64,000 nucleotides of DNA from Massilia sp. YIM B02443 (GTDB lineage: Bacteria; Pseudomonadota; Gammaproteobacteria; Burkholderiales; Burkholderiaceae_D). Position numbers and translations under genes: made by a program. Position 1 is the first letter of the stretch, and each line of letters opens with the position of its first letter. Location of the stretch: the NCBI RefSeq assembly GCF_030411955.1, contig NZ_JASNRA010000001.1, positions 434,001 to 498,000 of the forward strand. The letters run 5' to 3'. Shown here piece after piece: positions 4,871-57,409 of the stretch. Under the pieces are notes generated by a model that was not told the origin of the DNA, did not search any database, and worked only from the letters and a program-made list of their open reading frames with translations.

Positions 4871-4891
4871 TTGCGCAGCAACGATTTCTGT

Positions 4892-5245: not shown

Positions 5246-5264
5246 GTCGATTTCCCTAGTAAAA

Positions 5265-5296
5265 ATTCCCCGGCTGAATTTCTTCAGCCGGGGAAT
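5265..5296 (-). terminator. Rho-independent terminator after fliC
   Basis: A 14-bp perfect inverted repeat (ATTCCCCGGCTGAA) with a four-base loop, followed on the minus strand by a run of T. It sits 33 bases past the flagellin stop codon, as expected for a highly expressed monocistronic flagellin gene. Confidence 0.88.
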
Positions 5297-5329
5297 CGCT
5301 TACAGCGCGTTGTTACCTTGTGCTAGCGA

Positions 5330-8457: not shown

Positions 8458-8519
8458 GAGCGGTCGATCGGGATGAAAGATGAGCGATGAGGCCGAGTGT
8501 AACCTTGTGGAAACTCAGC

Positions 8520-10109: not shown

Positions 10110-10229
10110 GGGATGCTGCGAGGACGGATTTGCCGGATTGGCGACATGATAAGCAGCTTTCTTGCCGCTTATCAATTAAAAAAGACGACAAGCACGATTA
10201 CGCCTCCGCCTTACAACAGAATGTCACAT

Positions 10230-11989: not shown

Positions 11990-12086
11990 CGTTTGTCTCT
12001 CTGGTTGTGGCCGCACGCGACGGATGTTGGCAACATGATACGGCAAACGCGCCGCGATTCCCGTGAACTCTCGTTACAATGGCGTC

Positions 12087-12656
<570 letters not shown>

Positions 12657-43242: not shown

Positions 43243-43246
<4 letters not shown>

Positions 43247-43878
43247 GCAACCCAATGACTTTACTTGACATCATGCGCTCGGCGAGCGTGATCCCCGTCA
43301 TCGCCATCGACGATCCGGAGCACGCCGTGCCATTGGCGAAGGCCCTGGTGGCCGGCGGTATCCGCGTGCTGGAAGTCACGCTGCGCACCGAACATGGCCT
43401 GGGCGCGATCCGCGCCATGAGCCAGGTCGAAGGCGCCATCGTCGGCGTCGGCACCCTGACCCAGCCGGAAGAATTCGCGGCTTCGCGCGATGCCGGCGCC
43501 GTGTTCGGCGTGTCGCCGGGCCTGACGCCTGCGCTGATCGAAGCGGCGAAAACCAGCGGCCTGCCGCTGCTGCCGGGCGTGATGACGCCGGGCGAAGTGA
43601 TGGCGGCGCGCGAGGCCGGCTTCCGCCAGCTGAAGCTGTTCCCGGCGGTGCCGGCGGGCGGCGTCGGCATGCTCAACGCGATCGGCGGTCCGCTGCCGGA
43701 CGTGACCTTCTGCCCGACCGGCGGCATCTCGATCGAGACCGCGCCCGCTTTCCTGGCCTGCAAGAACGTGGCCTGCGTGGGCGGCTCCTGGCTGACCCCG
43801 AAGGATGCGATCCAGGCCGGCGACTGGGGCCGCATCACCGAGCTGGCCAAAGCGGCTGCCGCGCTGCGCGCCGCGTGA
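43243..43878 (+). CDS. eda: KDPG/KHG aldolase
   Basis: Splits KDPG into pyruvate and glyceraldehyde-3-phosphate. The 211-residue protein has the catalytic Glu in [12 protein letters not shown] and the Schiff-base Lys in [14 protein letters not shown], and the phosphate site FCPTGGIS. It begins with GTG overlapping the edd stop codon (GTGA); an ATG at 43255 is an alternative. It is translationally coupled to edd. Confidence 0.95.
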
Positions 43879-43903
43879 TCTGATTCTTCATCCGATCCGC
43901 AGC

Positions 43904-44452
43904 ATGCGATCCCGGTTCCGTCCCTTGAGCGAAGCCGAGATCGCGCTGGCGTCGCTGCTGTTTCGCGACGCCATCGACTACCGCCGGGTACGCATCTACA
44001 ACCGGCGCTACATGCCGTTCCAGCCGCGTAACTGCGCGATGACTCCGAACGGCAATATCTACTTTCATCAGTCCTGTTTTCTCCCCGACTATGCGCGCGG
44101 CGATCCGCCGGCGATCCACTGGTTCATGCACGAGATGGTGCACGTCTGGCAGCACCAGCTGGGGTATCCGGTGCGCCTGCGCGGGATGTTCCGGATCGGG
44201 CTGTCGTACGGCTACACGCTGCATGAAGACGCCACGCTGGCCGACTACAATATGGAAGCGCAGGGCGATCTGCTGGCCGATTACTTCGTGCTCAAGCACC
44301 TGAAGAAGCCGGCGGCGATGCGCCAGCAGCGCTATCGCGACAGCCTGGCGCTGTACGAGCGGGTGCTGGCGCTGTTCCTGGCGCAGCCGGGCAACCGCGC
44401 CAACTTGCGGCGCGGGCCGGCGCGCACGCTGGGCGCGCTGCTGTCGGCCTAG
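43904..44452 (+). CDS. Small zincin-like protein with HExxH motif
   Basis: 182 residues, unknown function. It contains FMHEMVHVWQHQLGYPV, a zinc-metallopeptidase-type HExxH motif, preceded by AMTPNGNIYFHQSCFLPDYA. This resembles small proteins annotated as vgr-related or the eCIS-core/DUF4157-like group. A further acidic segment (YTLHEDATLADYNMEAQGDL) could supply the third ligand. There is no signal peptide and no secretion-system gene nearby. It starts 25 bp past eda and its 3' end overlaps the convergent M19 dipeptidase gene by four bases. Proteolytic activity is unproven. Confidence 0.65.
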   Translation: MRSRFRPLSEAEIALASLLFRDAIDYRRVRIYNRRYMPFQPRNCAMTPNGNIYFHQSCFLPDYARGDPPAIHWFMHEMVHVWQHQLGYPVRLRGMFRIGLSYGYTLHEDATLADYNMEAQGDLLADYFVLKHLKKPAAMRQQRYRDSLALYERVLALFLAQPGNRANLRRGPARTLGALLSA

Positions 44453-45648
44453 CGCCGCACGCTCGCCGCGCCTTGCTCGGCCGCCTGCAGCACGCGCAGC
44501 ATGTTCCCGCTCCACAGTTTGGCCAGGTCGTCGTCCGACATCCCCTCTGCCTTCAGGCGCGCCGTGACGCGCGGCAGTGCCGTGATGTCGTCCAGCCCCG
44601 GGAAACCGCCGCCGCCATCGAAATCGGCGCCCATGCACACGTGGTCGATCCCGGCCACTTTTACCAGATGCAGCACCGACGCGATGTACTGGTCGAAGCT
44701 CGTCGCCCACAGCGATTCCGTCTTGTCGAGCTCACGCCAGCGCGCGGTCAAGCGTGCCTGCTCCTCGCCCGTCATCTGCGCCATGTGTTCGGTCTGGCCG
44801 AACAACTGTTCGCGCTCGGGGCTCATGGTCAACGGGCTCAGATAGATCGTGCTGGCGCAGATCGCGCCGCCGCCGGCCGCCACCTTGCGGATGTGTTCAT
44901 CATCCAGGTTGCGCGGATGGTCGAAGCTGGTGCGCGAATTCGAGTGCGACAGCAGCAGCGGCGTGTTCGAGAGCGCCAGCATCTGGTCCAGCGTCGCATC
45001 CGACGCGTGGCTGGCGTCGATCACCATCCCGAGCCGGTTCATCTCGCGCACCCACTCCCGTCCCAACGGACTCAGTCCATTCCAGCGCGGCTTGTCGGTC
45101 GACGAATCGGCGAACTGGTTGTTGCTGCTGTGGACGATGCCGACCAGGCGCACGCCCTGGCGCTGGAACTCGGCCAGCGGCGCCACGCTTTCACCGAATG
45201 GATAACTGTTCTCGATGCTCTTGAAGGCGGCCAGTTTGCCGGCGGCGTTCAGGCGCAGCGCATCGTCGGCGCCCGTGGCGGCGCCAATGCGCGCGGGGTA
45301 GCGGGCGAGGGTGGTGTCGATCAACGCCGAACGCGCCAGCGCGTGCGTACGCGCGGCCGCATAGCCCTCCGGCGTCAGCGGCCCCTGCTCGGTGAAGATG
45401 GCGAAGAAGCCACCATCGAGATTACCGTCGGCCATGCGCGGCAGGTCGAGTTGGGCAATCTCGGTGGCGGGATCGTGGCGCGCGCCGAAGTCCCAGCCGG
45501 GACGGCCGAAGTGCATCGGCGTGTCCAGGTGTCCGTCGAGCGTGAGCAGCTGGCGGTGCAGCGGACCGACCGGCGCCGGTTGCGACGCGCAGCCGGCAAG
45601 CAGGAACAGGACGGCAATGGCGATGCGGCGGGGCTTGTTCAGACTCAT
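44449..45648 (-). CDS. M19 (renal dipeptidase-type) membrane dipeptidase
   Basis: 399 residues with a lipoprotein signal (IAVLFLLAGCASQ), so it probably sits in the periplasm. Zinc ligands match the M19 family: DGHLDTP, FKSIENSYPFGE (Glu), GIVHSSNNQF, DASHASD and SHSNSRTSFDHPRNLDDEHI; also HVCMGADFDGGGGFPGLDDI. M19 enzymes split dipeptides and often accept a D-residue at the C-terminal position. Last gene of the D-peptide operon; its start overlaps the preceding serine hydrolase by four bases. Confidence 0.93.
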   Translation of the reverse strand: MSLNKPRRIAIAVLFLLAGCASQPAPVGPLHRQLLTLDGHLDTPMHFGRPGWDFGARHDPATEIAQLDLPRMADGNLDGGFFAIFTEQGPLTPEGYAAARTHALARSALIDTTLARYPARIGAATGADDALRLNAAGKLAAFKSIENSYPFGESVAPLAEFQRQGVRLVGIVHSSNNQFADSSTDKPRWNGLSPLGREWVREMNRLGMVIDASHASDATLDQMLALSNTPLLLSHSNSRTSFDHPRNLDDEHIRKVAAGGGAICASTIYLSPLTMSPEREQLFGQTEHMAQMTGEEQARLTARWRELDKTESLWATSFDQYIASVLHLVKVAGIDHVCMGADFDGGGGFPGLDDITALPRVTARLKAEGMSDDDLAKLWSGNMLRVLQAAEQGAASVRR

Positions 45649-47222
45649 TCGGCAGCTTTCCTCGGCGTGAAGTTCAGGTCCGCATAATCCCAGCTGAAGT
45701 CGGCCAGCGGCGAGACCGGCTTGAGCGCGATCCGCTCCACCTTGCCGTCCTTGTCGAAGGCAAAGCTCAGGTACGCGGGTTCGAGCGCATTATCGTCGAA
45801 GCGCGCGATCCAGGTGTCGTATTGCCAATGCTCGAGCCGGCCCGCCATGCGAGGCGTCGACTTGAAGTCGACCCGCAATCCGTCGCCGCTCGAGACGATT
45901 TCGATGTCGCCGTACCAGGGATCGGCATAGGTGCCAGCCAGCGCGCGCCCCGGCACCGACGGCCCGGCGCGCACCGGATTGCGCTGGCTCGACTTGAGCA
46001 CGTCCAGTCCCTGCTTCACCTGCTGCGTCTTGAACGCCTGGAATTTCGAAGGCCAGTCGGCGGCCGGCAAACCGAGGTAATGATCGGCCAGCTCGTACAT
46101 CAACCCGCGCACCAGTTCACCGTCTTCGCTGTTGACCGTGATGGCGAACGCCACCTTCTTCTCGGGCAGCACCACGATCGCGGTCTTGAAGCCGAACACC
46201 GCGCCGCCGTGCCACACCATGCGCGCGCCTCGGTAGTCGACGATGTCCCAGCCCAGGCCATAGTTCGAGAACTGCGACTGCATCAGTTTCAGGTCTAGCG
46301 GCATCTCGTCGGCCGGCATGGTCATGGCCGGGGTCCACATCTGGGCGTGGGTGGCGGCGCTGAACACGCGCTTGCCCTCGGGCGTGGCGCCGGCGCCGAG
46401 CAGCAGCTGCAGCCAGCGCGCCAGGTCGTTGGCGCTGCTGGCCACGCCGCCGGCCGGCGCGGCGTTGCGTCCCAGGTCGTCGCGCTCGTCCAGCCGCTCC
46501 TGCCTTCCGGCGCCGCGCAGGCCGCCGTCCATGCGCGCGTGTGGATACGCACGGTTCACGGTGGCGAAGTTGTCGACGTTGTCGGTGGTCGAGACGCGCA
46601 TGCCGGCCGGGCGCAGCACGTGCTCGCGCGTGTAGTCTTCCCAGCGCTGGCCGCCGACGGTCTCGATCAGCTGGCCGGCCACCACGTACATCAGGTTCGA
46701 GTACGCAAAGGTGCTGCGAAAACTGGTCTCCGGCTTCAGGTAGCGCACCCGGCGCACCACCTCCGCGCGCGGCACGCTGCTGCGCGGGACGAACAGCAGG
46801 TCGCCCGCGCCCATGCCAAGGCCGCTGCGGTGCACCAGCAGGTCGCGGATGGTGATCTCGCGCGTCACCCACGGGTCGTACATCTGGAAGCCGGGCAGGT
46901 GATCGACCACGCGGTCGTCCCACTTGATTTTTCCTGCATCGACCAGCGTGGCCAGCGCCGCCACCGTCATCGCTTTCGAGCTCGATCCGATCGGGAACAG
47001 GGTGTCGCCGTCGACCCGTTCGCGCGCATCCAGCTGGCGCACGCCGAAGCCGCGCGCCAGCGTCGTCTTGCCGTCTTCGACGATGGCGATCGCCATGCCG
47101 GGCGTGCCAATGCGTGCGCGTAGCTGTTCGGCGCGCGCTTCGAAGCCGCGCGGCGGCGCGGCCAGCGCGGGGACGGCCAGCGCCACTGTCAGCGCCAGGA
47201 CGGTAATGGGAGCAATTCGCAT
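45645..47222 (-). CDS. Secreted serine hydrolase (class C beta-lactamase fold)
   Basis: 525 residues with a cleavable signal (ITVLALTVALAVPALAAP). Catalytic motifs of the AmpC/D-aminopeptidase family are present: SSSK (about residue 79), YSN in FAYSNLMYVVAG, and HGG in VWHGGAVFGFKTA. The C-terminal region after about residue 400 is a small beta domain like DUF3471. Members include esterases, D-aminopeptidases and DD-peptidases. In this operon a D-peptide hydrolase is the best guess. It lies 12 bp past dgcN and overlaps the M19 gene. Confidence 0.92.
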   Translation of the reverse strand: MRIAPITVLALTVALAVPALAAPPRGFEARAEQLRARIGTPGMAIAIVEDGKTTLARGFGVRQLDARERVDGDTLFPIGSSSKAMTVAALATLVDAGKIKWDDRVVDHLPGFQMYDPWVTREITIRDLLVHRSGLGMGAGDLLFVPRSSVPRAEVVRRVRYLKPETSFRSTFAYSNLMYVVAGQLIETVGGQRWEDYTREHVLRPAGMRVSTTDNVDNFATVNRAYPHARMDGGLRGAGRQERLDERDDLGRNAAPAGGVASSANDLARWLQLLLGAGATPEGKRVFSAATHAQMWTPAMTMPADEMPLDLKLMQSQFSNYGLGWDIVDYRGARMVWHGGAVFGFKTAIVVLPEKKVAFAITVNSEDGELVRGLMYELADHYLGLPAADWPSKFQAFKTQQVKQGLDVLKSSQRNPVRAGPSVPGRALAGTYADPWYGDIEIVSSGDGLRVDFKSTPRMAGRLEHWQYDTWIARFDDNALEPAYLSFAFDKDGKVERIALKPVSPLADFSWDYADLNFTPRKAAE

Positions 47223-47234
47223 GGGTTCTCCAGT

Positions 47235-48260
47235 TCAGTCGCAGCAGGCGTCGAGCAGGCGCTCGAACGCCGGTCCACCGCGCATCGGATCGGCCACCGG
47301 ATAGGGCAGGCGTTCAGCCAGCGCCGCGATCTCGGCGGCGGCTTCGTGCTCGTCCAGGCTGCCGGTGTTCAGGGCCACGCCCACGCAGCGGATGGCGGGA
47401 TTGGTGACCCGGCCCAGCGCGATGGTCTGCGCCACCACCTCGCGGATCGAGGGCAGCGGCACGTGCGGGTAGCCGAGCAGGTGGCTGCGGGTCGGATCGT
47501 GGCAGACCACGAACATGTCGGGCTGGCTGCCGTGCAGCAGGCCGAGCGAGACGCCGGCGAAGGCCGGGTGGAACAGCGAGCCCTGGCCCTCGATCACGTC
47601 GATGTGGCCGGGCGCGGCGGCGGGGCTGAGCACCTCGGCGGCGCCGGCCACGAAGTCGGACACCACGGCGTCGATCGGCATGCCGCTGCCGGCGATCATG
47701 ATGCCGGTCTGGCCGGTGGCGCGAAACTCGGCGTCCATTCCACGCGCGCGCAGGCCGCGGCTGAGCGCCAGCGCCGTGTACTTCTTGCCCAGCGCGCAGT
47801 CGGTGCCGACGGTGAGCAAACGCTGTCCGCTGCGCGGCAAGCCGTTCGCAATCGGGATCGACGGCGGCGGGTTGCGCACGTCGACCAGGCGCCGGCCGTG
47901 GCGTGCGGCGGCGTCCAGCAGCTGCGGCAGCGACGCCAGGCGCACGTGCATGCCCGAGACGATGTCCAGGCCCGCTTCCAGCGCTTCCACCAATGCCGGC
48001 GCCCAGGCCGGCGGGATACCGCCGCCGGGCGCCGCCACGCCGATCACCAGCTCGCGCGCGCCCTGCGCCGCGGCCTGCGCCGGCGACAGCGAAGGCAGGC
48101 CGGCCGAGACGGTGGCGCCGGGCAGGCGCAGCTCGCCCACGCAGCGCTCGCCCGCCCAGTCGCGCAGGCCGAAGGCGGTCTTGGCGAAGCCCGGTTCGGT
48201 GATGTCGCCCAAAAACAGCAGGCAGCGCTTGATGCCCAATCCTTGGTTCGATGCCGTCAT
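47235..48260 (-). CDS. dgcN: DUF1611 protein, probable D-glutamate N-acetyltransferase DgcN
   Basis: 341 residues of the DUF1611 family. A P-loop-like segment TVGTDCALGKKYTALALSRG is followed by FRATGQTGIMIAGSGMPIDA and VVSDFVAGAAEVLSP, all diagnostic. A member named DgcN is reported to N-acetylate D-glutamate in a pathway with the racemase DgcA. A DgcA-like gene is in this same operon, which supports the assignment; the substrate is nevertheless inferred. The ATG overlaps the stop codon of the TonB-receptor gene by one base. Cytoplasmic. Confidence 0.8.
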   Translation of the reverse strand: MTASNQGLGIKRCLLFLGDITEPGFAKTAFGLRDWAGERCVGELRLPGATVSAGLPSLSPAQAAAQGARELVIGVAAPGGGIPPAWAPALVEALEAGLDIVSGMHVRLASLPQLLDAAARHGRRLVDVRNPPPSIPIANGLPRSGQRLLTVGTDCALGKKYTALALSRGLRARGMDAEFRATGQTGIMIAGSGMPIDAVVSDFVAGAAEVLSPAAAPGHIDVIEGQGSLFHPAFAGVSLGLLHGSQPDMFVVCHDPTRSHLLGYPHVPLPSIREVVAQTIALGRVTNPAIRCVGVALNTGSLDEHEAAAEIAALAERLPYPVADPMRGGPAFERLLDACCD

Positions 48261-50500
48261 CAATACTCCTTGGTCAGGGTCAGGCCGATCGTGCGCGGCG
48301 TGATGATCCCGGTGCTCATCGCCCCGTTCGGATAGACGAAGCCGCCGTTGGCGACGATCGCCGAAGTCGAGGTCTTGCCGTCGCTGTTGCCGATGTTCTT
48401 GGCAAAGGCTTCCACCGTCCACGATCCCAGCTCGACGCCGAAATGGGCGTCGAACACGTTGTACGACGGGATCTCGCGCTGGCGGCCGTTGGCGGCGCGG
48501 TAGTCGCTATCGAACGCGCCGTGCTGGCCGGCCACGCGCCGGCCCGAGACGCCGGCATAGGCCGGGGTGGTGGTTCCGATCACCCAGCGGTAGTCGGCCA
48601 TCAGCGCCAGCGTGTATTTCGGCGAGAACGGCAGCTTGTCGCCTTTGACGCCGCCCACCAGCGGGTCGGTATCGCCGTCCAGCTTCGCCTTGCCCCAGGT
48701 GCCGTTAGCCGACAGCCGCAGATTACGCACGGGCCGGTAGCTGGCGGTGAATTCGATGCCATCGCTGGTGGCGCCGGCGCCGTTGGTGTTCACGCCGTAG
48801 TCGTTGACGATGGCCAGCAGCTGGATGTCCTTCCACTTGATGTGATAGGCCGACAGGTCGAGCGCGAAGCGGCCGTCGCTCGACTCGGTCTTGAGGCCCG
48901 CCTCGTAGCTCATCACGCTGTCCGACTCGTAGGTGGCCGGGGTGCCGGGCGGCGTGTCCGGCGGCAGCACGTTGGGCCCGCCCGGACGGAAGCCCTTGGC
49001 GGCGCGCGCGTACAGCGCGGTGCGCTCGCCGAACTTGCGCTTCAGGGCGACGGCGTAGGTGAACACGTTTTCCTTCGAGTCGGCGCGGTAGTCCGATGCG
49101 CCGCCGGCCAGCGCGCCGTCGGACACCTGGCGCGCATCCTGCTCGTTCCGGCTGTAACGCCCGCCCAGGTCGAGGTCGTAGTGCTGGCCGAGATGGAAGG
49201 TGGTATTGGCGAAGGCCGCGATCTCGCGGTAGTTCGAGCGCAGGCCGATGTCGGCCAGCAGCGGCAGACCGGTCGCCGGGTCCATGGTGCCGGGCACCAC
49301 CGCGTGGTAGCGCTGGGCGATGGCGCCGTCTTCATCGGTGTAGTAAAGGCCGGCCAGCCAGTCGAACGCCTGGCCTTCGTTGGAAGACAGGCGCAGTTCC
49401 TGGGTGAATTTCTTCGACTCGACTTCCTGCCCCAGGTACAGCTCATTGGCGACGCCGAAGTTGTCGGCGACGATGCCGCTCAGGTTGAAGGTGGCGTCTT
49501 CGCGGATGAACTGCTTCTGGGTGCTGTAGCTGGTGGACGAGGTCAGGCTGGCGGCGCCGAAGTCCCAGTTGGCGGTGCCGTTGTAGACACGGTAGTGCAT
49601 GTCGCGCCGGGTCGGCACGTATTGGGACAGGGTGGGGCGGCCGTACAGCGTGTCGAGCGTATCGGGATCGCTCTCCACGGCGCTGGGCGCGTCGGCGGCG
49701 ATGTTCTGCGCGACAGCGGACAGGCGCAGGTTGAACTGGGCGTTCGGCTTGTACAGCAGCGACGCGCGCCCGCCATAGTTGCGGGCGTCGTTGATGTTCG
49801 ATTCGCGGTCCGAGCCGGCCACGCCAATCGAGTCGATGTAGCCGGGTTCCTTCAGGTACGAGCCGGATGCCCGGAACGCCAGCGTGTCGCTGATCGGCGT
49901 GTTCACCACCAGGTTGGAGCGGTAGCCGGTCTTGCCGCCGTCGCTTGACGCCACGCCGACCCGTGCGCGCAGCGCGAAGCCGTCGAAGTCGGGCGCATTG
50001 GTCACGAACTTGACCAGGCCGCCGAGCGAGCTGGCGCCGTACAAGGCGCCTTGCGGGCCGCGCAGCACCTCGATGCGCGCCAGGTCGAAGGTGTCGAAGT
50101 CGCCGGCCAGGATCGCGCCGTTCACCAGGCCGCTGCTGGAGCCGAACGGCGTCTCGTCCAGGTACACCGCCACCGTCGACGCCACGCCGCCGGTATCGAG
50201 CCCGCGCAGCACGATACGGCCTTCGCCCGGCGTGCTTTGCACCAGCTGCAGGCTGGGCACCAGTTTCAGGTAGTCCGAGAAGCCGACCGCCTGGTGCTTC
50301 TCGAGCGCGTCGCCGCCGACCACCGACATCGACTGCGGCACGTCGACTGTCGCCTGCGCGCGCTTTTGCGCCGTCACCACCACCTGCTGGGTGTCGTCGC
50401 GCAACGCTTGCTGGCCGGCCGCGAAGGCGCCGGACACGGCCAGCGCCATCGACGTCGCCGCCAGCGATTTCAAACCGATACGACCCGCTACTGTTGCCAT
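48260..50500 (-). CDS. TonB-dependent outer-membrane receptor
   Basis: A 746-residue receptor with signal peptide (LAATSMALAVSGAFAAG), TonB-box-like DTQQVVVTAQKR, a plug domain (PQSMSVVGGDALEKHQAV, RIEVLRGPQGALYGASSLGG) and a 22-strand beta-barrel ending GLTLTKEY. The ATG at 50500 (MATVAG) is preceded by GGGAG at correct spacing; an ATG six bases earlier is less likely. The operon suggests it imports peptides or murein fragments rather than iron complexes; there is no siderophore gene nearby. It follows the POT transporter by 26 bp. Confidence 0.93.
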   Translation of the reverse strand: MATVAGRIGLKSLAATSMALAVSGAFAAGQQALRDDTQQVVVTAQKRAQATVDVPQSMSVVGGDALEKHQAVGFSDYLKLVPSLQLVQSTPGEGRIVLRGLDTGGVASTVAVYLDETPFGSSSGLVNGAILAGDFDTFDLARIEVLRGPQGALYGASSLGGLVKFVTNAPDFDGFALRARVGVASSDGGKTGYRSNLVVNTPISDTLAFRASGSYLKEPGYIDSIGVAGSDRESNINDARNYGGRASLLYKPNAQFNLRLSAVAQNIAADAPSAVESDPDTLDTLYGRPTLSQYVPTRRDMHYRVYNGTANWDFGAASLTSSTSYSTQKQFIREDATFNLSGIVADNFGVANELYLGQEVESKKFTQELRLSSNEGQAFDWLAGLYYTDEDGAIAQRYHAVVPGTMDPATGLPLLADIGLRSNYREIAAFANTTFHLGQHYDLDLGGRYSRNEQDARQVSDGALAGGASDYRADSKENVFTYAVALKRKFGERTALYARAAKGFRPGGPNVLPPDTPPGTPATYESDSVMSYEAGLKTESSDGRFALDLSAYHIKWKDIQLLAIVNDYGVNTNGAGATSDGIEFTASYRPVRNLRLSANGTWGKAKLDGDTDPLVGGVKGDKLPFSPKYTLALMADYRWVIGTTTPAYAGVSGRRVAGQHGAFDSDYRAANGRQREIPSYNVFDAHFGVELGSWTVEAFAKNIGNSDGKTSTSAIVANGGFVYPNGAMSTGIITPRTIGLTLTKEY

Positions 50501-50526
50501 GTGCATCTCCCGTCGTCTTGTAGTCA

Positions 50527-51837
50527 TCAGGTGTGTTGGATTGCAGTGGACGTCGCGGTGTCCGATGGTTGGGGGCGGTCGGCGCGTCGCATCGGGCCGT
50601 CCAGGCGCCACAGCAGCGCGGCGGCGGTCAGCGCCAGCAGCGCGAGCAGGGCGAAGAACGCGCCGTGCCCCATGCGGCTCCACAGGCTGCCCACCAGCCC
50701 GGCCGACAGGCTGCCGGCGAAGGTGACCAGGAACCAGGCCGCGACCGTGGTCGAACCCAGATGACGCGGCGCCAGGCGCGCGAAGAGGCCCAGGCCGGCG
50801 GGCAGGATGAACAGTTCGCCGAAGGTCAGCACCAGGAAGAAGAGAAGCAGCCAGATCCAGCCGGTGGTGGCCTTGGCTTGGGCGCCGGCGTTCCAGCTGA
50901 CCGCCGCCAGCAGCAGGTAGGCCGCGGACACGATGGCGGCGCCGCAGGCCATGCGCCGCAGCGGCGCCTGGTCGACCCCGCGCGCGGCGCGCCGGCCCCA
51001 CCAGGCCAGCAGCGGAGGCGTCATCAGCATCACGAACAAGGGGTTCAGCGACTGGAACCAGGTCATGGGGATCGCGAAGCCGCCGGCATTGCGATCGACG
51101 CCGGTGTCGGCCCACAGCGCCACCGTGTTGCCGACCTGTTCGTAGGCGGCGCGGAATACCGTCACCGCCAGGCCGACGCCGAGCAGCACCAGCACGGTGT
51201 CGCGCGCCATGCCGCGCCGCGGTTCGGCATCGACCGCAGGTGTGCGCGGCAGCTCGGGCGGCAGATAGCGCTGTCCCGCCACGTAGATCGCCAGCCCGGC
51301 CAGCATGCCGATGCCGGCCAGGCCGAAGCCGTAGTGCCAGCCATACAGTTCGCCCACGGTGCCGCAGATCAGCGGCGCCAGGAAGCCGCCGATGTTGACG
51401 CCGACGTAATACACGTTGAACGCCCAGCCGCGCCGTGCGTCGCCATGCGCGTACAGGTCGCCCACCTGGCTCGGCAGCGACGGCAGGAACAGGCCGTTGC
51501 CGAGCGCAATGGTGGCCAGCGCCAGGTAAAACAGGGCGTCGAAGGTCATCATGAAGTGGCCCGCCGCCATGATCGAGGCGCCGGTCACGATCGCGCGCCG
51601 CTTGCCGAGCACACGGTCGGCCAGCACCCCGCCCAGGATCGGCGTGAAATAGGCGCAGGCGGTATAGGCGCCGTAGACGAAAGAGGCGTGGGCCTGGCCC
51701 AGCATCAGCTGCTTGGTCATGTAGTAGACCAGCAGCGCGCGCATGCCGTAGTACGAGAACTGTTCCCACATATTCGTCAGGAACAGGATCGTCAGGCCGC
51801 GCGGGTGGCCGAACCAGGTCGGCGCGGCGTTGTTCAT
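50527..51837 (-). CDS. POT-family proton-coupled peptide transporter
   Basis: A 436-residue inner-membrane transporter of the PTR2/POT family with about 12 membrane segments. The signature region NMWEQFSYYGMRALLVYYM matches, except that the usual ExxERF reads NMWEQF: the first Glu and the Arg are changed while the second Glu remains. Other conserved parts are GAYTACAYFTPILGGVLADR and AFNVYYVGVNIGGFLAPLI. It should import di- and tripeptides. Its ATG overlaps the dgcA stop codon by four bases. Confidence 0.92.
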   Translation of the reverse strand: MNNAAPTWFGHPRGLTILFLTNMWEQFSYYGMRALLVYYMTKQLMLGQAHASFVYGAYTACAYFTPILGGVLADRVLGKRRAIVTGASIMAAGHFMMTFDALFYLALATIALGNGLFLPSLPSQVGDLYAHGDARRGWAFNVYYVGVNIGGFLAPLICGTVGELYGWHYGFGLAGIGMLAGLAIYVAGQRYLPPELPRTPAVDAEPRRGMARDTVLVLLGVGLAVTVFRAAYEQVGNTVALWADTGVDRNAGGFAIPMTWFQSLNPLFVMLMTPPLLAWWGRRAARGVDQAPLRRMACGAAIVSAAYLLLAAVSWNAGAQAKATTGWIWLLLFFLVLTFGELFILPAGLGLFARLAPRHLGSTTVAAWFLVTFAGSLSAGLVGSLWSRMGHGAFFALLALLALTAAALLWRLDGPMRRADRPQPSDTATSTAIQHT

Positions 51838-52844
51838 GCCGTGACTCCGACCGGCGCACCCCAGACTTCGGGGCCGGCCCAGACCTCGCCGTCGACGTAC
51901 TGCACGCCAGGGTCGCGGTCGTTAGCCAGGAAGATCGGGCCGTCCAGGTCGACGATGTCGCACACCTGTCCCAGCACGAAGCTCGGGCCCATCGCCAGGC
52001 TGGAGCCACCCATGTTGCCGACCATGACGCCAAGGCCCAGACGGCGCGCTTCCTGCGCCATCATCAGCGCTTCGGTCAGGCCGCCGCATTTATCGAGCTT
52101 GATGTTAACAACGTCGAAGCGGCCCACGGCGCCGGGCACGTCTTCCAGCGACAGGATGCTCTCGTCGCCGGCGATCGGAATCGGCGACTTCAAGCCTGCG
52201 AGGCTGGCTTCCTGCCCGCGCGCCAGCGGCTGCTCGAGCAGGGCCACGTCGTGCGCCTGCAGCCCGGCGATGAGCGCGTCGAGCTGGCCCGGGACGAAGC
52301 CCTGGTTGCCATCCACGCCGAGCCAGACGTCGGGCCGCGCGGCGCGGATCGCGCCAACGCGCGCCAGGTCCAGATCGAGTTCGCCGGTGAGCTTGATCTT
52401 GATGGCGCGCGCCTGGGCGTGGCTGCGCGCCGTTTCGGCCATCGCCGCGGGTTCCTCGGCGCCCAGCGTGAAGGTGGTGCGCAGTGCACGCGGTACGTCC
52501 TGGCCGGCCAGCTTCCACACCGGCACGCCGGCGCGCGCCGCCTCCAGTTCCCACAACGCGCAATCGACCGCGTTGCGCGCGCCGCCCGGCGGCAGGATGG
52601 CACGCAGCTGTTCGCGCGTCGGGCCGGCCTCGATGGCGTCGCGCGCGGCCTCCAGCGTGTCCAGCATGTGCGGCACGTCGTCGCCCAGGTAATACACGCC
52701 GCCGCCTTCGCCGCGGCCGCGATGCAGGCCGTCGTCGAGCGTGACCACCACCACCTGGAAGGCCTCGAACACGTAGCCCGAAATCCGGAACGGCTTGGCC
52801 AGGCGCAGCCGCTCGGCTGCGATCGACATGGTCAGGCGCTTCAT
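51834..52844 (-). CDS. dgcA: Enolase-superfamily epimerase, DgcA-like dipeptide/N-acyl-Glu racemase
   Basis: 336 residues of the muconate-lactonizing subgroup. Catalytic lysines lie in AIKIKLTGE (KxK) and VNIKLDKCGG; metal ligands in WLGVDGNQGF, LLEQPL and IAGDES. Family members include L-Ala-D/L-Glu epimerase and DgcA, which is reported to racemise N-acetyl-D-glutamate. Both fit a role with the downstream DUF1611 gene. The start at 52844 overlaps the upstream gene's stop codon (TGATG); an ATG five codons later is an alternative. Cytoplasmic. Substrate not proven. Confidence 0.85.
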   Translation of the reverse strand: MKRLTMSIAAERLRLAKPFRISGYVFEAFQVVVVTLDDGLHRGRGEGGGVYYLGDDVPHMLDTLEAARDAIEAGPTREQLRAILPPGGARNAVDCALWELEAARAGVPVWKLAGQDVPRALRTTFTLGAEEPAAMAETARSHAQARAIKIKLTGELDLDLARVGAIRAARPDVWLGVDGNQGFVPGQLDALIAGLQAHDVALLEQPLARGQEASLAGLKSPIPIAGDESILSLEDVPGAVGRFDVVNIKLDKCGGLTEALMMAQEARRLGLGVMVGNMGGSSLAMGPSFVLGQVCDIVDLDGPIFLANDRDPGVQYVDGEVWAGPEVWGAPVGVTA

Positions 52845-54892
52845 CAGTAGCTCACCGACATCGCCACCAGGTGGTAGCGCACCGCCACGTAGCAGACCAG
52901 CAGGGCGCTGAGCAGGAACAGCATGCTCCACGCCTTGCGCCACCAGCCCTGCTGCGGCTTGAACGCCAGGCGCAGGTTGCTGGCGCCGGCGACCAGCGCC
53001 GCCAAAAAGGCCAGCAGGCCGGCGACCTGCAGCAGCCACAGCCAGCCGTCGAGCGCGGCGGTGGCGTTGGCGACCGTGTTTTCGAGCGCCAGCACCACGC
53101 CGGTCCAGCCGGCCAGCACCAGCAGGCTGGCCAGCGCCGCCAGCTGCATCGCCAGCACCGTCTTCTTCGCCGCGCCGCCGTGCGGATACGCGAGCTTGTA
53201 GCGACGGCGCACGATCCAGCCGGCCGGCATCGCCACAAAGGTGAACAGGAACACCAGCACCGCCGCGCCCAGCGCCGGCAGCAGCCAGGCCGCATTGGTC
53301 CCGGCCGGGACGCGGTCGAGCACCATGAACGGCGACATGAAGTCCATGCTCCAGCGCACCACCTGGTCGTTCACCACCTGCGCCGCGAGACGGTCTTCAC
53401 CATTGCGGTCGCGCCAGACGAAGGGCGCGATCTCGACCCATTCGCGCGGACGGTTGTTGGGGCCGAGCAGGGCCGGGACCACCAGTTCGCCTTCGGGCCC
53501 GGTATGGATCTTCACCTGGCCCAGCAGGCCAAACAGCGCAAAGATGTTCGACTCCGAGCGGCGGCTGCTTTGCCACGACCCCACCATCATCTGCGCATGG
53601 CGCTTGGCCGTGTCGGCGTCGACCCGGCCATCCGGCGCGCCCTGGTTCGGGAAATAGCGGTCGGCGAAATCGTGGAACAGGGCGCCGCGCAGCGTGTTGG
53701 ACGCGCCCGGATGGCCGCTGCCGTTCACCGACAGGTACAGGCCGACGCCTTCGCGCATGAACAGGTGCAGCGAGGTGTGGAAGGCTTCGGTGTCGCCCAG
53801 GTGGGCGATCACGTCACGGCCGTTCACGTTGGTCTCGAAGAAGCCCAGTTCCATGCGGTTGAGCGGACCGATGATGGTCGACCTGGCGATCTTGTCGAGC
53901 GGGCTGTCGTGCATCATCGCTGCGGTGGCGCTGGAGAGGATGCGGCGGCCCTTGAATTCGCCGCCGGCCAGGTGCGCGATCATGAAGTTGGCCATGTCGA
54001 CGCCACTGGCCGACAGCGCCCCGGCCGGCGCCGAATTGACGATCTCGAAGCCGAGCGAGGGCTCGCCCGGCGTGATGTAGCCGGTGGCCATGTGCGGGGC
54101 CAGCGCGGCGGGCAGCGGCTGGCGGAAGCTGGCGCTCTTCATCTCGAGCGGGGCGAAGACGTGCTGTTCGACGTAGTCGTCGAACGACTGGCCCGACACC
54201 CGTTCGACGATGTAGCCGGCCAGTGAAGTCGCGTAGTTGGAGTAGGCCGGCGTGACGCCGGGCTCGAAGATGCGCTCCGGTACCCAGCTCTTGAGCAGCG
54301 CGCCGAGCGGCTTGTAGTCGCCCTTGCCGTAGACGATCAGGTACTTGACCGCTTCCTCGAAGCCGGCGGTATGGGTCATCACGTTGCGCATCGTGATCGG
54401 CTTGTCGCCACGTGCTGCGATTTTAAAATCGAGGTAGGTGTTGATGTCGGCGTCGAGGTCGATCTTGCCTTGTTCGACCAGCTGCATCACGGCGGTCCAG
54501 GTGACCAGCTTCGACACCGAGCCGGGACGGAACAGCGTGCGCAGCGGGTCGACCGGAGTGCGCTTGTCGACGTCGGCGTAGCCGAAACCGCGCGCGGTGA
54601 GGATCTGGCCGTCCTTGACCACCACGACCACGGCGCCGGGGATGTCGCTGGTGTTCAGCGCGAACGGCATGTAGCCGTCGAGCCAGGCGTCGACATTGGT
54701 CTTGTCGAGCGCTTGCGGCTGGCCCGGCGTGCCTGCCTGGACTGCGCTTTGCGGCGTGTCCGACGGCTTGGGGCCGGGCTTGAGCGGGGAGAGGGGAGTC
54801 GAGGGCGGCGTCGGCGCCTGGACCGCCTGCTGCGCTGTCACATTCGCGTGCCAGCAGGCTAGGCCGAGCAGCAATAACTTCAGGAATCTCAT
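52844..54892 (-). CDS. Serine hydrolase (class C beta-lactamase fold) with four-helix membrane tail
   Basis: 682 residues. A signal peptide (FLKLLLLGLACWHANVTAQ) and a Pro/Gln-rich linker precede a beta-lactamase-like domain with SVSK, YSN in PAYSNYATSLAGYIVE, and HLG in VIAHLGDTEAFHTS. After residue about 530 there are four hydrophobic segments (for example LLPALGAAVLVFLFTFVAMP and LQVAGLLAFLAALVAGASNL), so the catalytic domain is anchored facing the periplasm. I chose ATG 54892 with GGGGGAC ahead; an in-frame ATG lies six codons upstream. First gene of the operon. A D-amino-acid peptidase or esterase role is inferred. Confidence 0.88.
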   Translation of the reverse strand: MRFLKLLLLGLACWHANVTAQQAVQAPTPPSTPLSPLKPGPKPSDTPQSAVQAGTPGQPQALDKTNVDAWLDGYMPFALNTSDIPGAVVVVVKDGQILTARGFGYADVDKRTPVDPLRTLFRPGSVSKLVTWTAVMQLVEQGKIDLDADINTYLDFKIAARGDKPITMRNVMTHTAGFEEAVKYLIVYGKGDYKPLGALLKSWVPERIFEPGVTPAYSNYATSLAGYIVERVSGQSFDDYVEQHVFAPLEMKSASFRQPLPAALAPHMATGYITPGEPSLGFEIVNSAPAGALSASGVDMANFMIAHLAGGEFKGRRILSSATAAMMHDSPLDKIARSTIIGPLNRMELGFFETNVNGRDVIAHLGDTEAFHTSLHLFMREGVGLYLSVNGSGHPGASNTLRGALFHDFADRYFPNQGAPDGRVDADTAKRHAQMMVGSWQSSRRSESNIFALFGLLGQVKIHTGPEGELVVPALLGPNNRPREWVEIAPFVWRDRNGEDRLAAQVVNDQVVRWSMDFMSPFMVLDRVPAGTNAAWLLPALGAAVLVFLFTFVAMPAGWIVRRRYKLAYPHGGAAKKTVLAMQLAALASLLVLAGWTGVVLALENTVANATAALDGWLWLLQVAGLLAFLAALVAGASNLRLAFKPQQGWWRKAWSMLFLLSALLVCYVAVRYHLVAMSVSY

Positions 54893-54964
54893 ACAGTCCC
54901 CCATCTCCACGGTTGATTGCGATCGCCGGATCGAGCCTATAAAATAGTTCCTGATCCGAGTATT

Positions 54965-54982
54965 TTTCTCTGATTAGAGAAA
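54965..54982. promoter_or_regulatory. Operator palindrome at the D-peptide operon promoter
   Basis: TTTCTCT-GATT-AGAGAAA, perfect seven-base arms around four bases. On the minus strand it begins at the -10 box of the operon promoter and covers the expected start site. A second copy of the same motif lies at 55709-55726. It is the best candidate site for the XRE-cupin regulator. Confidence 0.72.
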
Positions 54983-55009
54983 TATCTACCTCGACGGAAA
55001 ATTTGTCAA
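54981..55009 (-). promoter_or_regulatory. Promoter of the D-peptide operon
   Basis: TTGACA (55004-55009), a 17-base spacer, and GATATT (54981-54986) read on the minus strand. The -35 box is a perfect consensus; the -10 matches four of six. It points into the membrane-tailed serine hydrolase gene, with a leader of about 80 bases. The palindrome directly downstream indicates repression at this promoter. Confidence 0.7.
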
Positions 55010-55024
55010 CAACGAAAAATAAAC

Positions 55025-55702
55025 ATGTCATCTGACTCCCCGACACTGGCCGCGCTGATTCGCGGCCTGCGCAGCCGCCAGGGCTGGACGCTGAAGGAAA
55101 TGAGCGTCAAGAGCGGCATCCCGGTCTCGACGCTGTCGAAGGTCGAGCACGGGCAGCTGACGCTGACCTACGACAAGCTGTACCAGCTGAGCCAAAAGCT
55201 CGGCATGCGCATGTCGGAACTATTCGCGGAAGAGAAAAGCGAGGGGGAGACGCCGGTGACGGCGCGCCGCAGCGTGGGCAGCCTGGAGACGGCGCTGCGG
55301 GTCGAGACGCCCAATTACGACTACCACTACCTGTGCGCCGAGCTACGCCGCAAGCGCATGATCCCGGTGTTCACGCGCCTGCGCGCCAGCAGCGTCAAGC
55401 AGTTCGGCAGCCTGGTGCACCACTCGGGCGAGGAGTTCACCTATGTGCTGAAAGGGACGATGGTGCTGCATACGGAGTTCTACGACCCGGTGACCTTGAG
55501 CGCCGGGCAGTCGATCTATTTCGATTCGAGCATGGGACACGCCTACCTGACGGCGGAGGGCTGCGACGAGGTCGAGATGTTGACCGTGATGTCGAACGAC
55601 GATGAGGACCAGCACGCGATCATGGCGTCGCATGCGCCGGTGCGGGCCGAAGAAAAGCCGAAGCCGGAGCCGGCTCGGGGGCGCAAGCGCAGCGGCGCCT
55701 GA
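55025..55702 (+). CDS. XRE-family regulator with C-terminal cupin domain
   Basis: 225 residues. An N-terminal helix-turn-helix (TLAALIRGLRSRQGWTLKEM, SGIPVSTLSKVEHGQLTLTY) is followed by a cupin sensor domain (residues about 120-190, LVHHSGEEFTYVLKGTMVLH, YDPVTLSAGQSIYFDSSMGH). The tail is basic and Pro-rich. Regulators of this type bind small metabolites such as amino acids. It is divergent from the D-peptide operon with a promoter and palindrome between them, so it is the likely local repressor or activator. Confidence 0.92.
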   Translation: MSSDSPTLAALIRGLRSRQGWTLKEMSVKSGIPVSTLSKVEHGQLTLTYDKLYQLSQKLGMRMSELFAEEKSEGETPVTARRSVGSLETALRVETPNYDYHYLCAELRRKRMIPVFTRLRASSVKQFGSLVHHSGEEFTYVLKGTMVLHTEFYDPVTLSAGQSIYFDSSMGHAYLTAEGCDEVEMLTVMSNDDEDQHAIMASHAPVRAEEKPKPEPARGRKRSGA

Positions 55703-55708
55703 CAAGTA

Positions 55709-55726
55709 ATTCTCCGATCGGAGAAT
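55709..55726. promoter_or_regulatory. Second copy of the XRE-cupin palindrome
   Basis: ATTCTCCGATCGGAGAAT, an 18-base perfect palindrome just after the regulator's stop codon. It shares the motif TTCTCYGATYRGAGAA with the operator at 54965-54982. It lies between two convergent genes, so it may be an auxiliary or looping site rather than a promoter operator; a short terminator hairpin is an alternative. Confidence 0.6.
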
Positions 55727-55730
55727 CCGG

Positions 55731-56534
55731 TCAGCCTTTCTTTTCGTCGAGCGTCACGTTGTCCAGCGGACCGACGAAGCCGATGGTTGCCGCGCCTGTT
55801 GCCGCCCTGGCCGGGTCGAACGGCAGCACGTGGCACAGGCCTTCGACACGCGTCGCGGCCGGCACGCCGTCGATCTCGATGCGCGCGTCGGCCGAGCGGA
55901 AGCACGCCCGCAAGCCGGCGATGCTGGCGTTGCGGATCTCGCGCAGGCCGAGCCGGTACCACGGAACCTGGTTCTGCACGATCTTGAACTCGTCGATGGC
56001 CTTGGCGAAATCCGCATACGCGAGCGTCTGCTCGGGCGACAGGCGCAGCTTGAATGCCACGTTCAGGCTGCGCCACTTGGTCTGGGCATTGAACATGACC
56101 GTGGCGCTTTCCTGCACCGCCTGCGCCAGGTAGGGCAGCACGAAGTAACCGCCGCGGCCGACCGGCACCACCTGGTCGAAGGTGTCGCCGACAATGGCGA
56201 CGCCCCAGGTCTCGGGATTGTAGGCGTCGTTCGCGGCGCCGTCGGGTTCCTTGAACGAAAGCCGGTAGGTGAAGTCGATCACGCGCGGCTCGGGCGGCTG
56301 GAACGATTGCAGCAGCGACTGGATGCCGAAGAAGGATTTGTACGACAGGTCGCCGGCGTTCTTCCCGGCGTTGATCTTGACCGGGGATTGCGCGCCGGCC
56401 GGCGCTTCGGTCACAGCCGGCGTGTCGAGGGGCGCTGCGTCCTGCGCCGCGGCATGGGCGCTGCCCAGTGCTGCCAGCAGCGCCAGCAACGCCGGGATGC
56501 GGCGACCCGTCAGCGCCTGAAAAATGTGCTTCAT
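55731..56534 (-). CDS. Secreted protein of unknown function
   Basis: 267 residues with a signal peptide (RRIPALLALLAALGSAHAAA) and a mature part of about 240 residues without a family I recognise. It is a globular, mixed alpha/beta sequence: VIDFTYRLSFKEPDGAANDA, DQVVPVGRGGYFVLPYLAQA and KWRSLNVAFKLRLSPEQTLA. Two cysteines (RACFRSADAR and EGLCHVLPFD) could form a disulfide. AAGGATC precedes the ATG. It points away from rpiA and is convergent with the XRE-cupin gene. A remnant of an ABC permease lies directly upstream, so a transposed or deleted segment may separate it from its former neighbours. Confidence 0.75.
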   Translation of the reverse strand: MKHIFQALTGRRIPALLALLAALGSAHAAAQDAAPLDTPAVTEAPAGAQSPVKINAGKNAGDLSYKSFFGIQSLLQSFQPPEPRVIDFTYRLSFKEPDGAANDAYNPETWGVAIVGDTFDQVVPVGRGGYFVLPYLAQAVQESATVMFNAQTKWRSLNVAFKLRLSPEQTLAYADFAKAIDEFKIVQNQVPWYRLGLREIRNASIAGLRACFRSADARIEIDGVPAATRVEGLCHVLPFDPARAATGAATIGFVGPLDNVTLDEKKG

Positions 56535-56563
56535 CCGTGATCCTTTGCTCGAAGTGTCGTAGT

Positions 56564-56686
56564 TTACTCGTATCGTAAACAATCCACCGGCAGCAGGCGC
56601 GACATCCTGCGCGCCGGATAGAAAATCCCGACCACTGCCGCGCCGCCGACGGCGATCGCGATCGTCAGGCCCAGCGACGGAATCCG
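56564..56686 (-). pseudogene. Remnant of an ABC transporter permease (MacB/FtsX C-terminus)
   Basis: About 40 codons, including the stop, with no start and an in-frame stop directly upstream. The peptide GGAAVVGIFYPARRMSRLLP followed by VDCLRYE is a close match to the last membrane helix and tail of FtsX/MacB-type permeases (usually GIYPARRAARLDPIEALRYE). The rest of the gene is gone; its place is taken by the rpiA promoter. This is an eroded remnant. Confidence 0.75.
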
Positions 56687-56731
56687 CTAGAATGACGGCT
56701 TCCCTTCTTACCATCGCAACGACATCGCATC

Positions 56732-57409
56732 ATGACTCAAGACGAACTGAAACAAGCTACGGCGCGCGCCGCCATCGACTACGTGGTCGACGGTGAAATC
56801 ATCGGCGTCGGCACCGGCTCGACCGCCAACTTCTTCATCGACGAACTGGCGAAGATCAAGGACCGCATCAAGGGCACCGTGGCGTCATCGGAAGCGACCG
56901 CCGCACACCTGCGCGGCCACGGCATCCCGGTGTTCGATCTGAACGAGGTCGAGTCGATGGCGGTGTACATCGACGGCGCCGACGAGATCAACGCGCAGGG
57001 CGCGATGATCAAGGGCGGCGGCGCAGCGCTGACGCGCGAGAAGATCGTGGCCTCGGTGGCCAAGAAATTCGTGTGCATCGCGGATGGCTCGAAGTTGGTC
57101 GAGACGCTCGGCAAGTTCCCGCTGCCGGTCGAAGTGATCCCGATGGCGCGCGCGTCCGTGATGCGCAAGCTGGTGGCGCTGGGCGGCCAGCCGAAGCTGC
57201 GCCTGAAGGCGGGCACCGACCAGCCGTACATCACCGACAACGGCGGTGAGCTGATCGACGTTGCCGGCCTGTCGATTACCGATCCGGTGGCGCTGGAAAA
57301 CGAGATCAACGGGATCACCGGCGTGATCGCCGTGGGCCTGTTTGCCAGGGCCGGCGCCAACGTCTGCCTGCTGGGCACGGCGGAAGGCGTCAAGACCCTG
57401 TCGTTCTGA
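56732..57409 (+). CDS. rpiA: Ribose-5-phosphate isomerase A
   Basis: Interconverts ribose-5-phosphate and ribulose-5-phosphate. The 225-residue protein has [15 protein letters not shown], the catalytic [12 protein letters not shown] and [20 protein letters not shown], and [20 protein letters not shown]. Full length. A TAGAAT box lies at 56688-56693, giving a leader of about 35 bases. A small lipoprotein gene follows after 13 bp. Confidence 0.97.

What the first reader, a model, noticed from the sequence alone, without database searches (positions are those of the whole stretch)
44449..54892. Seven-gene operon that looks like a complete D-residue peptide (probably D-glutamate/murein peptide) uptake and catabolic path
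Seen: seven same-strand genes with overlaps or gaps of at most 26 bp. They are a membrane-tailed serine hydrolase, an enolase-superfamily epimerase, a POT peptide transporter, a TonB receptor, a DUF1611 protein, a secreted serine hydrolase and an M19 dipeptidase. Known: DUF1611 (DgcN) and DgcA are reported to convert D-Glu to N-acetyl-D-Glu and then N-acetyl-L-Glu; M19 enzymes and class-C-fold hydrolases often act on D-residues; AEE epimerases act on L-Ala-D-Glu. Inference: the combination is a self-contained route from extracellular D-Glu peptides to L-Glu derivatives. I do not know a described operon with this full set.
Basis: partly seen in the sequence, partly recalled or inferred. Interest (0 to 1): 0.82.

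Follow-up and report, generated by a model that had tools for sequence, protein, structure and literature searches.

The report
D-peptide uptake and inversion operon
A Massilia-like genome carries a seven-gene operon, conserved in several families of bacteria, that looks built to import peptides with mirror-image (D) amino acids and turn them into normal ones; its two inverting enzymes look tuned to neutral or greasy amino acids rather than the D-glutamate first proposed, but no activity has been shown.

Summary
In detail: seven minus-strand genes (44449-54892) overlap or lie at most 26 bp apart, with the families named. Missed: a divergent XRE-cupin regulator (55025-55702) and an operator-like motif. 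The unit is real. In 75 loci of at least 15 kb around close DUF1611 relatives, same-strand homologues occur for the epimerase in 69, membrane-tailed hydrolase in 68 and TonB receptor in 60; the regulator is divergent in 65.

D-peptide use is a good inference; D-glutamate is doubtful. Both inverting enzymes score under NCBIfam's DgcN and DgcA cut-offs and form clades apart from eight over-cut-off dgcN-dgcA pairs, which lack the envelope genes. The epimerase lost the cap arginines of YcjG and 4gfi (two invariant, one usual in DgcA); DUF1611 lost Arg262. In 12 of 80 relatives a ScyB-like amino-acid dehydrogenase and an Lrp gene adjoin the operon; the window's genome has none.

Best reading: D-peptide scavenging in which N-acetylation plus racemisation, or LD-dipeptide epimerisation, inverts neutral or hydrophobic D-residues. 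Inference throughout on activity. New variant of a known kind.

The parts
52844..54892 (-). SH1: membrane-tailed, presumably periplasmic serine hydrolase (PF00144), first gene
   Evidence: PF00144 200.2 bits; SVSK at 125, YSN at 217, four C-terminal hydrophobic segments
51834..52844 (-). EPI: enolase-superfamily racemase/epimerase, DgcA/YcjG-like, without cap arginines
   Evidence: NCBIfam DgcA 349.6 bits under cut-off 400; catalytic residues kept, G23/F26/Y52; clade apart from DgcA/YcjG; model pLDDT 93.7, TM 0.94 to 4gfi
50527..51837 (-). POT-family transporter, 436 aa, MWEQF where ExxERF is usual
   Evidence: TIGR00924 278.7 bits, PF00854 177.6 bits; motif in relatives; gap against solved POTs
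48260..50527 (-). TonB-dependent outer-membrane receptor (start 50527 or 50500)
   Evidence: Plug and barrel domains
47235..48260 (-). DUF1611 / DgcN-like protein (presumed D-amino-acid N-acetyltransferase)
   Evidence: NCBIfam DgcN 439.2 bits under cut-off 480; only DUF1611 match in the genome; own clade 100/97
45645..47222 (-). SH2: presumably exported serine hydrolase (PF00144 + DUF3471)
   Evidence: PF00144 224.6 bits, DUF3471 85.6 bits; SSSK, YSN, HGG and N-terminal hydrophobic segment
44449..45648 (-). M19 membrane-dipeptidase-type protein with lipobox-like LLAGC, last gene
   Evidence: PF01244 284.2 bits; nearest solved 2rag, 391 bits
55025..55702 (+). Divergent XRE-cupin transcription regulator, presumed regulator of the operon
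   Evidence: HTH_3 and Cupin_2; homologue divergent in 65 of 75 loci
54965..54982 (.). Palindrome TTTCTCTGATTAGAGAAA between regulator and SH1, presumed operator
   Evidence: ATCAGG in 50 of 63 regulator-SH1 intergenic regions
54949..54958 (.). Second ATCAGGA half-site of the presumed operator
   Evidence: motif counts

Best explanation
A regulated operon for using peptides that contain D-amino acids, with neutral or hydrophobic D-residues the likelier substrates. SHOWN by sequence: gene content, order, conservation, a linked divergent regulator with an operator-like motif, kept catalytic motifs, distinct clades, and loss of basic residues in both inverting enzymes. INFERRED: the TonB receptor brings D-residue oligopeptides into the periplasm. 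SH1 (membrane anchored), SH2 and the M19 protein trim them to dipeptides and free amino acids. The POT-type carrier (with a LeuT-fold carrier in most relatives) moves the products inward. The DUF1611 protein N-acetylates the D-amino acid and EPI inverts N-acetyl-D- to N-acetyl-L-amino acid, which is drained by deacetylation and, in some relatives, by an amino-acid dehydrogenase. EPI may additionally or instead epimerise LD-dipeptides.
For: Conservation: of 75 loci of at least 15 kb (5 shorter of 80 dropped), same-strand homologues in the fetched stretch: EPI 69, SH1 68, TBDT 60, SH2 58, POT 36, M19 33, Tat-M19 22, extra LeuT-fold carrier 61; XRE 68, divergent 65. Operator: ATCAGG in 50 of 63 regions; no 6-mer above 13 in 5 mononucleotide shuffles. 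Genus: 8 of 62 genomes hold an EPI above 500 bits; the same 8 plus one divergent case hold DUF1611. Enzymes: KxK, D178, E204, D227, K249 and DxD kept in 82 of 82 operon EPIs (rows at least 53% identical, window included); cap positions are G23 (81/82), F26 (80/82), Y or F52 (82/82), against R23 8/8, R26 6/8, R52 8/8 in classic DgcAs and Arg at all three in YcjG and 4gfi. DUF1611: L262 in 82 of 89 against R in 9 of 9 (8 classic loci plus 7xrj). Separate clades. Dehydrogenase nearest NCBIfam ScyB (279.8 bits, under its cut-off 600; glutamate dehydrogenase 74.7) with an Lrp/AsnC-type gene, 277-642 bp from a mapped operon gene, in 12 of 80 loci. PRK09061-like amidohydrolases in 20 of 80 (the one scanned scored 215 against cut-off 340). 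The extra carrier's best Foldseek match is MhsT with L-Val.
Against: No activity or growth datum. The window's genome and 5 Oxalobacteraceae relatives have no such dehydrogenase at E 1e-20 (8 of 36 genomes have none). The B. thetaiotaomicron epimerase 3iji, solved with L-Ala-D-Glu, has Arg only at position 26, so other residues can serve Glu. That the cap Args bind the Glu side chain is recalled, and so is any substrate preference of 3jva, which lacks them. Arg209, Gln181: also found in other aligned epimerases, so not diagnostic. L128/G052 has an operon-clade EPI without DUF1611, so EPI need not act on N-acetyl amino acids. Under-cut-off intermediates blur the two types: L136 and L137 have DUF1611 and EPI with TonB receptor and, in L137, SH1 homologues, and L136's DUF1611 scores 472.5, just under the DgcN cut-off. 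POT versus M19 exclusivity was tested and not significant (p 0.15). D-specificity of SH1, SH2 and M19 is assumed from their families.
Confidence: 0.5

Rival explanations
1. D-Glu / murein-peptide pathway: DUF1611 acetylates D-Glu, EPI racemises N-acetyl-D-Glu, and the envelope enzymes release D-Glu from muropeptides.
For: Best NCBIfam hits are DgcN and DgcA; DUF1611 is the only match of its family and EPI the only match to itself at E 0.001 in the genome, so no separate murein epimerase showed up; B. thetaiotaomicron's epimerase, solved with L-Ala-D-Glu, has only one of the cap Args.
Against: Below both curated cut-offs; cap Args and DUF1611 Arg262 lost almost without exception; 8 of 8 examined over-cut-off dgcN-dgcA pairs lack homologues of this operon's envelope genes.
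Confidence: 0.25
2. EPI is a dipeptide epimerase for LD-dipeptides imported by the POT carrier, and DUF1611 does a separate job on free D-amino acids; the two do not act in series. (Overlaps with the best explanation, so the odds do not add to 1.)
For: EPI keeps the DxD motif (recalled to bind the dipeptide's ammonium group) in 82 of 82; POT and M19 families handle dipeptides (recalled); G052 has an operon-clade EPI beside a TonB receptor homologue but no DUF1611 match.
Against: DxD is equally kept in 8 of 8 classic DgcAs; EPI is on the same strand within the fetched stretch of DUF1611 in 69 of 75 loci, and adjacent to it in 8 of 8 classic loci.
Confidence: 0.35
3. General peptide scavenging or envelope maintenance, with the D-amino-acid link an artefact of family names.
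For: PF00144, M19 and POT proteins also act on L-peptides and other substrates (recalled); TonB receptor specificity is unknown; family names are not tests.
Against: The two apparently cytoplasmic enzymes are a DUF1611 protein and a racemase/epimerase; amidohydrolases of a family recalled to include N-acyl-D-amino-acid deacylases recur nearby (20 of 80).
Confidence: 0.12

Closest known systems
DgcN-DgcA D-glutamate pathway (EC 2.3.1.312 / 5.1.1.25)
   Same: DUF1611 protein plus enolase-superfamily racemase encoded together; catalytic positions of the racemase kept
   Different: The 8 over-cut-off pairs examined have no TonB receptor, serine hydrolase, POT or M19 homologue in the fetched stretch; both enzymes here are separate clades with lost arginines and under-cut-off scores. 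The primary paper is not held (recalled); the pathway was seen in passages of PMC11747546, PMC12363236 and PMC10845958.
E. coli YcjG-MpaA-MppA murein-peptide genes
   Same: Epimerase with peptide hydrolysis and uptake genes nearby
   Different: YcjG groups with DgcA, not with EPI; a binding protein of an ABC transporter instead of TonB receptor and POT; no DUF1611 annotated in the stretch
Microcystin mlr cluster of sphingomonads
   Same: Some of the same bacteria; D-residue peptides; mlrD, mlrA, mlrB and mlrC named as a cluster in a passage of PMC9144602; gene families recalled
   Different: None of the seven genes matched the families that I recall for mlrA and mlrC; no regulator or racemase with mlr in the passages read
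D-stereospecific peptidases of Bacillales (BogQ, TriF and a D-Leu/D-Val-preferring activity)
   Same: Peptidases acting at D-residues of nonribosomal peptides (passages of PMC9541196)
   Different: Proposed there as antibiotic resistance; no uptake or inversion genes in the passages read

Membership tests
DgcN (NCBIfam NF041892) | Whole-protein score over curated cut-off 480 | tested here: not met
   439.2 bits
DgcN (NCBIfam NF041892) | Both DUF1611 domains and residues invariant across classic and operon types | tested here: met
   PF17396 and PF07755; invariant list
DgcN (NCBIfam NF041892) | Groups with over-cut-off members and PDB 7xrj | tested here: not met
   Operon type 100/97, classic 98/94, separate; 19 operon rows, a subsample
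DgcN (NCBIfam NF041892) | D-Glu N-acetyltransferase activity | not testable with these tools
   needs assay
DgcA (NCBIfam NF042940) | Score over curated cut-off 400 | tested here: not met
   349.6 bits
DgcA (NCBIfam NF042940) | Catalytic KxK, three metal acids, Lys, DxD | tested here: met
   82 of 82 operon EPIs; roles recalled
DgcA (NCBIfam NF042940) | Cap arginines of classic DgcA (positions 23 and 52 in 8 of 8, 26 in 6 of 8) | tested here: not met
   G23, F26, Y52
DgcA (NCBIfam NF042940) | N-acetyl-D-Glu racemase activity | not testable with these tools
   needs assay
L-Ala-D/L-Glu epimerase YcjG (NF011708) | Score over cut-off 343 and grouping with E. coli YcjG | tested here: not met
   210.4 bits; separate clade. 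Three classic DgcAs also pass this cut-off, so it does not separate the two functions
POT oligopeptide:H+ symporter (TIGR00924, PF00854) | Score over curated cut-off | tested here: met
   278.7 vs 130.2; 177.6 vs 27
POT oligopeptide:H+ symporter (TIGR00924, PF00854) | ExxER proton-coupling motif (recalled) | tested here: not met
   NMWEQF; no row has Arg there
POT oligopeptide:H+ symporter (TIGR00924, PF00854) | Two extra bacterial helices between the halves (recalled) | tested here: inconclusive
   Query 186-207 against chain 201-288 of 7q0l left unaligned; no model made
Peptidase M19 | PF01244 over cut-off | tested here: met
   284.2 vs 26
Serine hydrolases of PF00144 (SH1, SH2) | PF00144 over cut-off with SxxK, YxN and HxG (motifs recalled) | tested here: met
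   (in SH1 the third motif is most likely HLG at 364)

The most novel reading that the evidence does not exclude
A second N-acetylation-racemisation route, parallel to DgcN-DgcA but for neutral or hydrophobic D-amino acids, coupled to its own outer-membrane receptor, periplasmic D-peptidases and an atypical POT carrier: a nutritional system for D-residue peptides such as nonribosomal peptides, present in at least five proteobacterial families.
Probability: 0.35. Interest if true: 0.75.

Novelty: new variant of a known kind. Interest (0 to 1): 0.58.

Why it matters
If right, several families of Proteobacteria hold a dedicated route for D-residue peptides, which resist ordinary peptidases and include wall fragments and many nonribosomal antibiotics (recalled; also said in passages of PMC9541196). 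It would extend the DUF1611-racemase chemistry beyond acidic D-amino acids and their amides, give a function to genes now named only serine hydrolase, TonB receptor or dipeptide epimerase, and warn against copying the DgcN/DgcA labels onto this clade. Two enzymes and a substrate panel would decide it.

Tried and rejected
Rejected or dropped: (1) D-Glu specificity as the default reading. (2) POT and M19 as mutually exclusive alternatives: 21 of 37 POT loci and 28 of 38 others hold an M19 or Tat-M19 on either strand; Fisher p 0.15. (3) Arg209 as a compensating specificity change: that position is also basic in 3iji, 3jva and 3u9i as aligned. (4) A perfect TCTCT-AGAGA palindrome as the general operator: exact in 4 of 63 regions, all of the window's genus; only the ATCAGG core is general (mononucleotide shuffles, related sequences). 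(5) The naive binomial p printed for dehydrogenase linkage is not used: I had put all 12 linked loci among the 36 genomes and chose the 55% identity line afterwards, so '12 of 17' is biased; the fair count is 12 of 80 loci. (6) The first tree had wrongly extracted outgroup frames and is superseded. (7) Microcystin papers: the passages read do not mention this locus. (8) VIA-align was not available. (9) Classic loci: 9 of 369 genomes exceed the DgcN cut-off; I fetched 8 with flanks, not the ninth (G256, 4.1-kb contig).

Literature: 'DUF1611' occurs in 2 held papers. Seven hold at least two of DgcN, DgcA and D-glutamate, several of them on unrelated diguanylate cyclases. Of the 3 papers, one holds the two enzyme names. 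Nothing in the listings, or in the passages that I opened, describes this operon; I read no paper in full, and most subscription journals are not held.
Full report
Observation. Seven minus-strand genes lie at 44449-54892 with overlaps or short gaps as described. SH1 has four C-terminal hydrophobic segments, SH2 an N-terminal one, and M19 begins with a lipobox-like LLAGC; both serine hydrolases keep SxxK and YxN.

Conservation. I mapped the window's proteins onto them, plus two proteins of relatives: an unnamed membrane protein and a Tat-type M19. In the 75 loci of at least 15 kb (L010, L016, L027, L056 and L079 are shorter and were dropped), same-strand homologues with over 70% coverage anywhere in the fetched stretch number: EPI 69, SH1 68, membrane protein 61, TonB receptor 60, SH2 58, POT 36, M19 33, Tat-M19 22. 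The XRE gene is present in 68 and divergent in 65. The families named include Oxalobacteraceae, Sphingomonadaceae, Erythrobacteraceae, Caulobacteraceae, Lysobacteraceae and Steroidobacteraceae. The window's exact order recurs in 6 of the 75 loci and in all 5 further operon-bearing stretches fetched from its genus.

Patchiness. In the genus, 9 of 62 genomes (own included) have a DUF1611 match, and 8 of these have an EPI above 500 bits. SH1 above 1000 bits is in those same 8 and in none of the 21 other genomes tested, the best of which scores 503. The operon lies between eda and rpiA in 7 of the 8; in G034 it is on another contig. In the 11 genomes without it that I tested, eda and rpiA lie about 2 to 15 kb apart, so the interval is variable.

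Regulation. In 63 XRE-SH1 intergenic regions (window included) the 6-mer ATCAGG occurs in 50, ATCAGGA in 42 and TTGACAA in 31, either strand; the most frequent 6-mer in any of five mononucleotide shuffles reached 13. The sequences are related, so this shows a conserved site, not its function.

Known pairs differ. In an even sample of 369 genomes of the class, 19 have a DgcN match and 9 exceed its cut-off. I fetched 8 of the 9 with flanks: each has the DgcA homologue next to DgcN, and none has a tblastn match at 1e-8 to SH1, SH2, POT, TonB receptor, M19 or XRE in its 14.9-20 kb. Some diverged loci under the cut-off blur this: L136 and L137 (one genome, G078) have DUF1611 and EPI with TonB receptor homologues, and L137 also an SH1 and an amidohydrolase-like ORF; L136's DUF1611 scores 472.5. 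On trees of subsampled rows, operon-type DUF1611 proteins form a clade at 100/97, apart from the classic ones with PDB 7xrj (98/94). Operon-type EPIs with one relative lacking DUF1611 (L128) form a clade at 97/99 (87/87 without it), whereas E. coli YcjG and 4gfi sit among the classic DgcAs (99/93).

Specificity. KxK, the metal acids, K249 and DxD are kept in 82 of 82 operon EPIs. The substrate cap differs: position 23 is Gly in 81 of 82 (Arg in 8 of 8 classic), 26 is Phe in 80 (Arg in 6 of 8), 52 is Tyr or Phe in 82 (Arg in 8 of 8). YcjG and 4gfi have Arg at all three. That these loops contact the substrate side chain, and that an Arg there binds Glu in the B. subtilis enzyme, is recalled. Of solved epimerases aligned, 3jva and 3u9i have no Arg at these positions; 3iji, solved with L-Ala-D-Glu by its title, has one. 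In DUF1611, Arg262 of the classic proteins (9 of 9, 7xrj included) is Leu in 82 of 89; its place relative to the active site is unknown to me. The EPI model is confident (pLDDT 93.7) and closest to 4gfi, TM 0.94, which does not favour either substrate.

Neighbours in relatives. In 12 of 80 loci a dehydrogenase closest to tryptophan dehydrogenase ScyB (279.8 bits, under that model's cut-off of 600; glutamate dehydrogenase 74.7) lies 277-642 bp from a mapped operon gene, with an Lrp/AsnC-type gene in all 12 and in both orientations. That this family acts on Leu, Val, Phe or Trp is recalled. In 20 of 80 a PRK09061-like amidohydrolase is in the stretch. Against this, the window's genome and five Oxalobacteraceae relatives have no such dehydrogenase at E 1e-20, and L-residues of the same peptides could feed it. 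The extra membrane protein matches no Pfam or NCBIfam family, but its model (pLDDT 91.3) has the LeuT/APC fold; its best Foldseek match is MhsT with L-valine (E 1.3e-5, TM 0.63), and Nramp metal transporters score about as well. It is not in the window's operon or those of 6 of 6 Oxalobacteraceae loci.

Transport. In the rows the operon POTs are 395-450 aa as called by my script, and the Arg of ExxER is never Arg (Gln, Thr, Ile, Lys, Leu, Met, or Glu in L066), so coupling or substrate may differ.

Conclusion. A conserved operon is shown, and D-peptide scavenging is the reading its families suggest. D-Glu is not the favoured substrate; neutral or hydrophobic D-residues fit better. Whether EPI acts on N-acetyl amino acids, LD-dipeptides or both is open. 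Everything about activity is inference. Ten papers were opened, passages only: PMC10845958, PMC12363236, PMC11747546, PMC9541196, PMC9144602, PMC6691742, PMC13338154, PMC8142540, PMC3605383, PMC6090828. The primary DgcN paper is not held and is recalled.

Noticed in passing
L008:10998-12122 and homologues (61 of 75 loci): Conserved ~375-aa membrane protein in the operons of most relatives, no Pfam or NCBIfam match, predicted LeuT/APC fold; not found in the Oxalobacteraceae loci.
   Followed up: partly
window 50527-51837 and the rows: POT subfamily without the Arg of ExxER and apparently short between its two halves.
   Followed up: partly
L128 (G052), about 8987-12300: Operon-clade epimerase beside a TonB receptor homologue in a genome of the window's genus with no DUF1611 match.
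   Followed up: partly
L137 (G078), 2160-10169: Reduced cluster DUF1611-EPI-SH1-TonB receptor-amidohydrolase-like ORF with diverged enzymes, possibly an intermediate form.
   Followed up: no
G002, G010, G025, G034: Neighbouring pairs of SH1 paralogues (38-47% identical to SH1) away from the operon in other genomes of the genus.
   Followed up: no
window 43243-57409: The interval between eda and rpiA varies from about 2 to 28 kb among the relatives tested and looks like a variable spot.
   Followed up: partly
L122 (G018), 8729-10709: A genome of the window's genus with a diverged, adjacent DUF1611-epimerase pair instead of the operon.
   Followed up: partly
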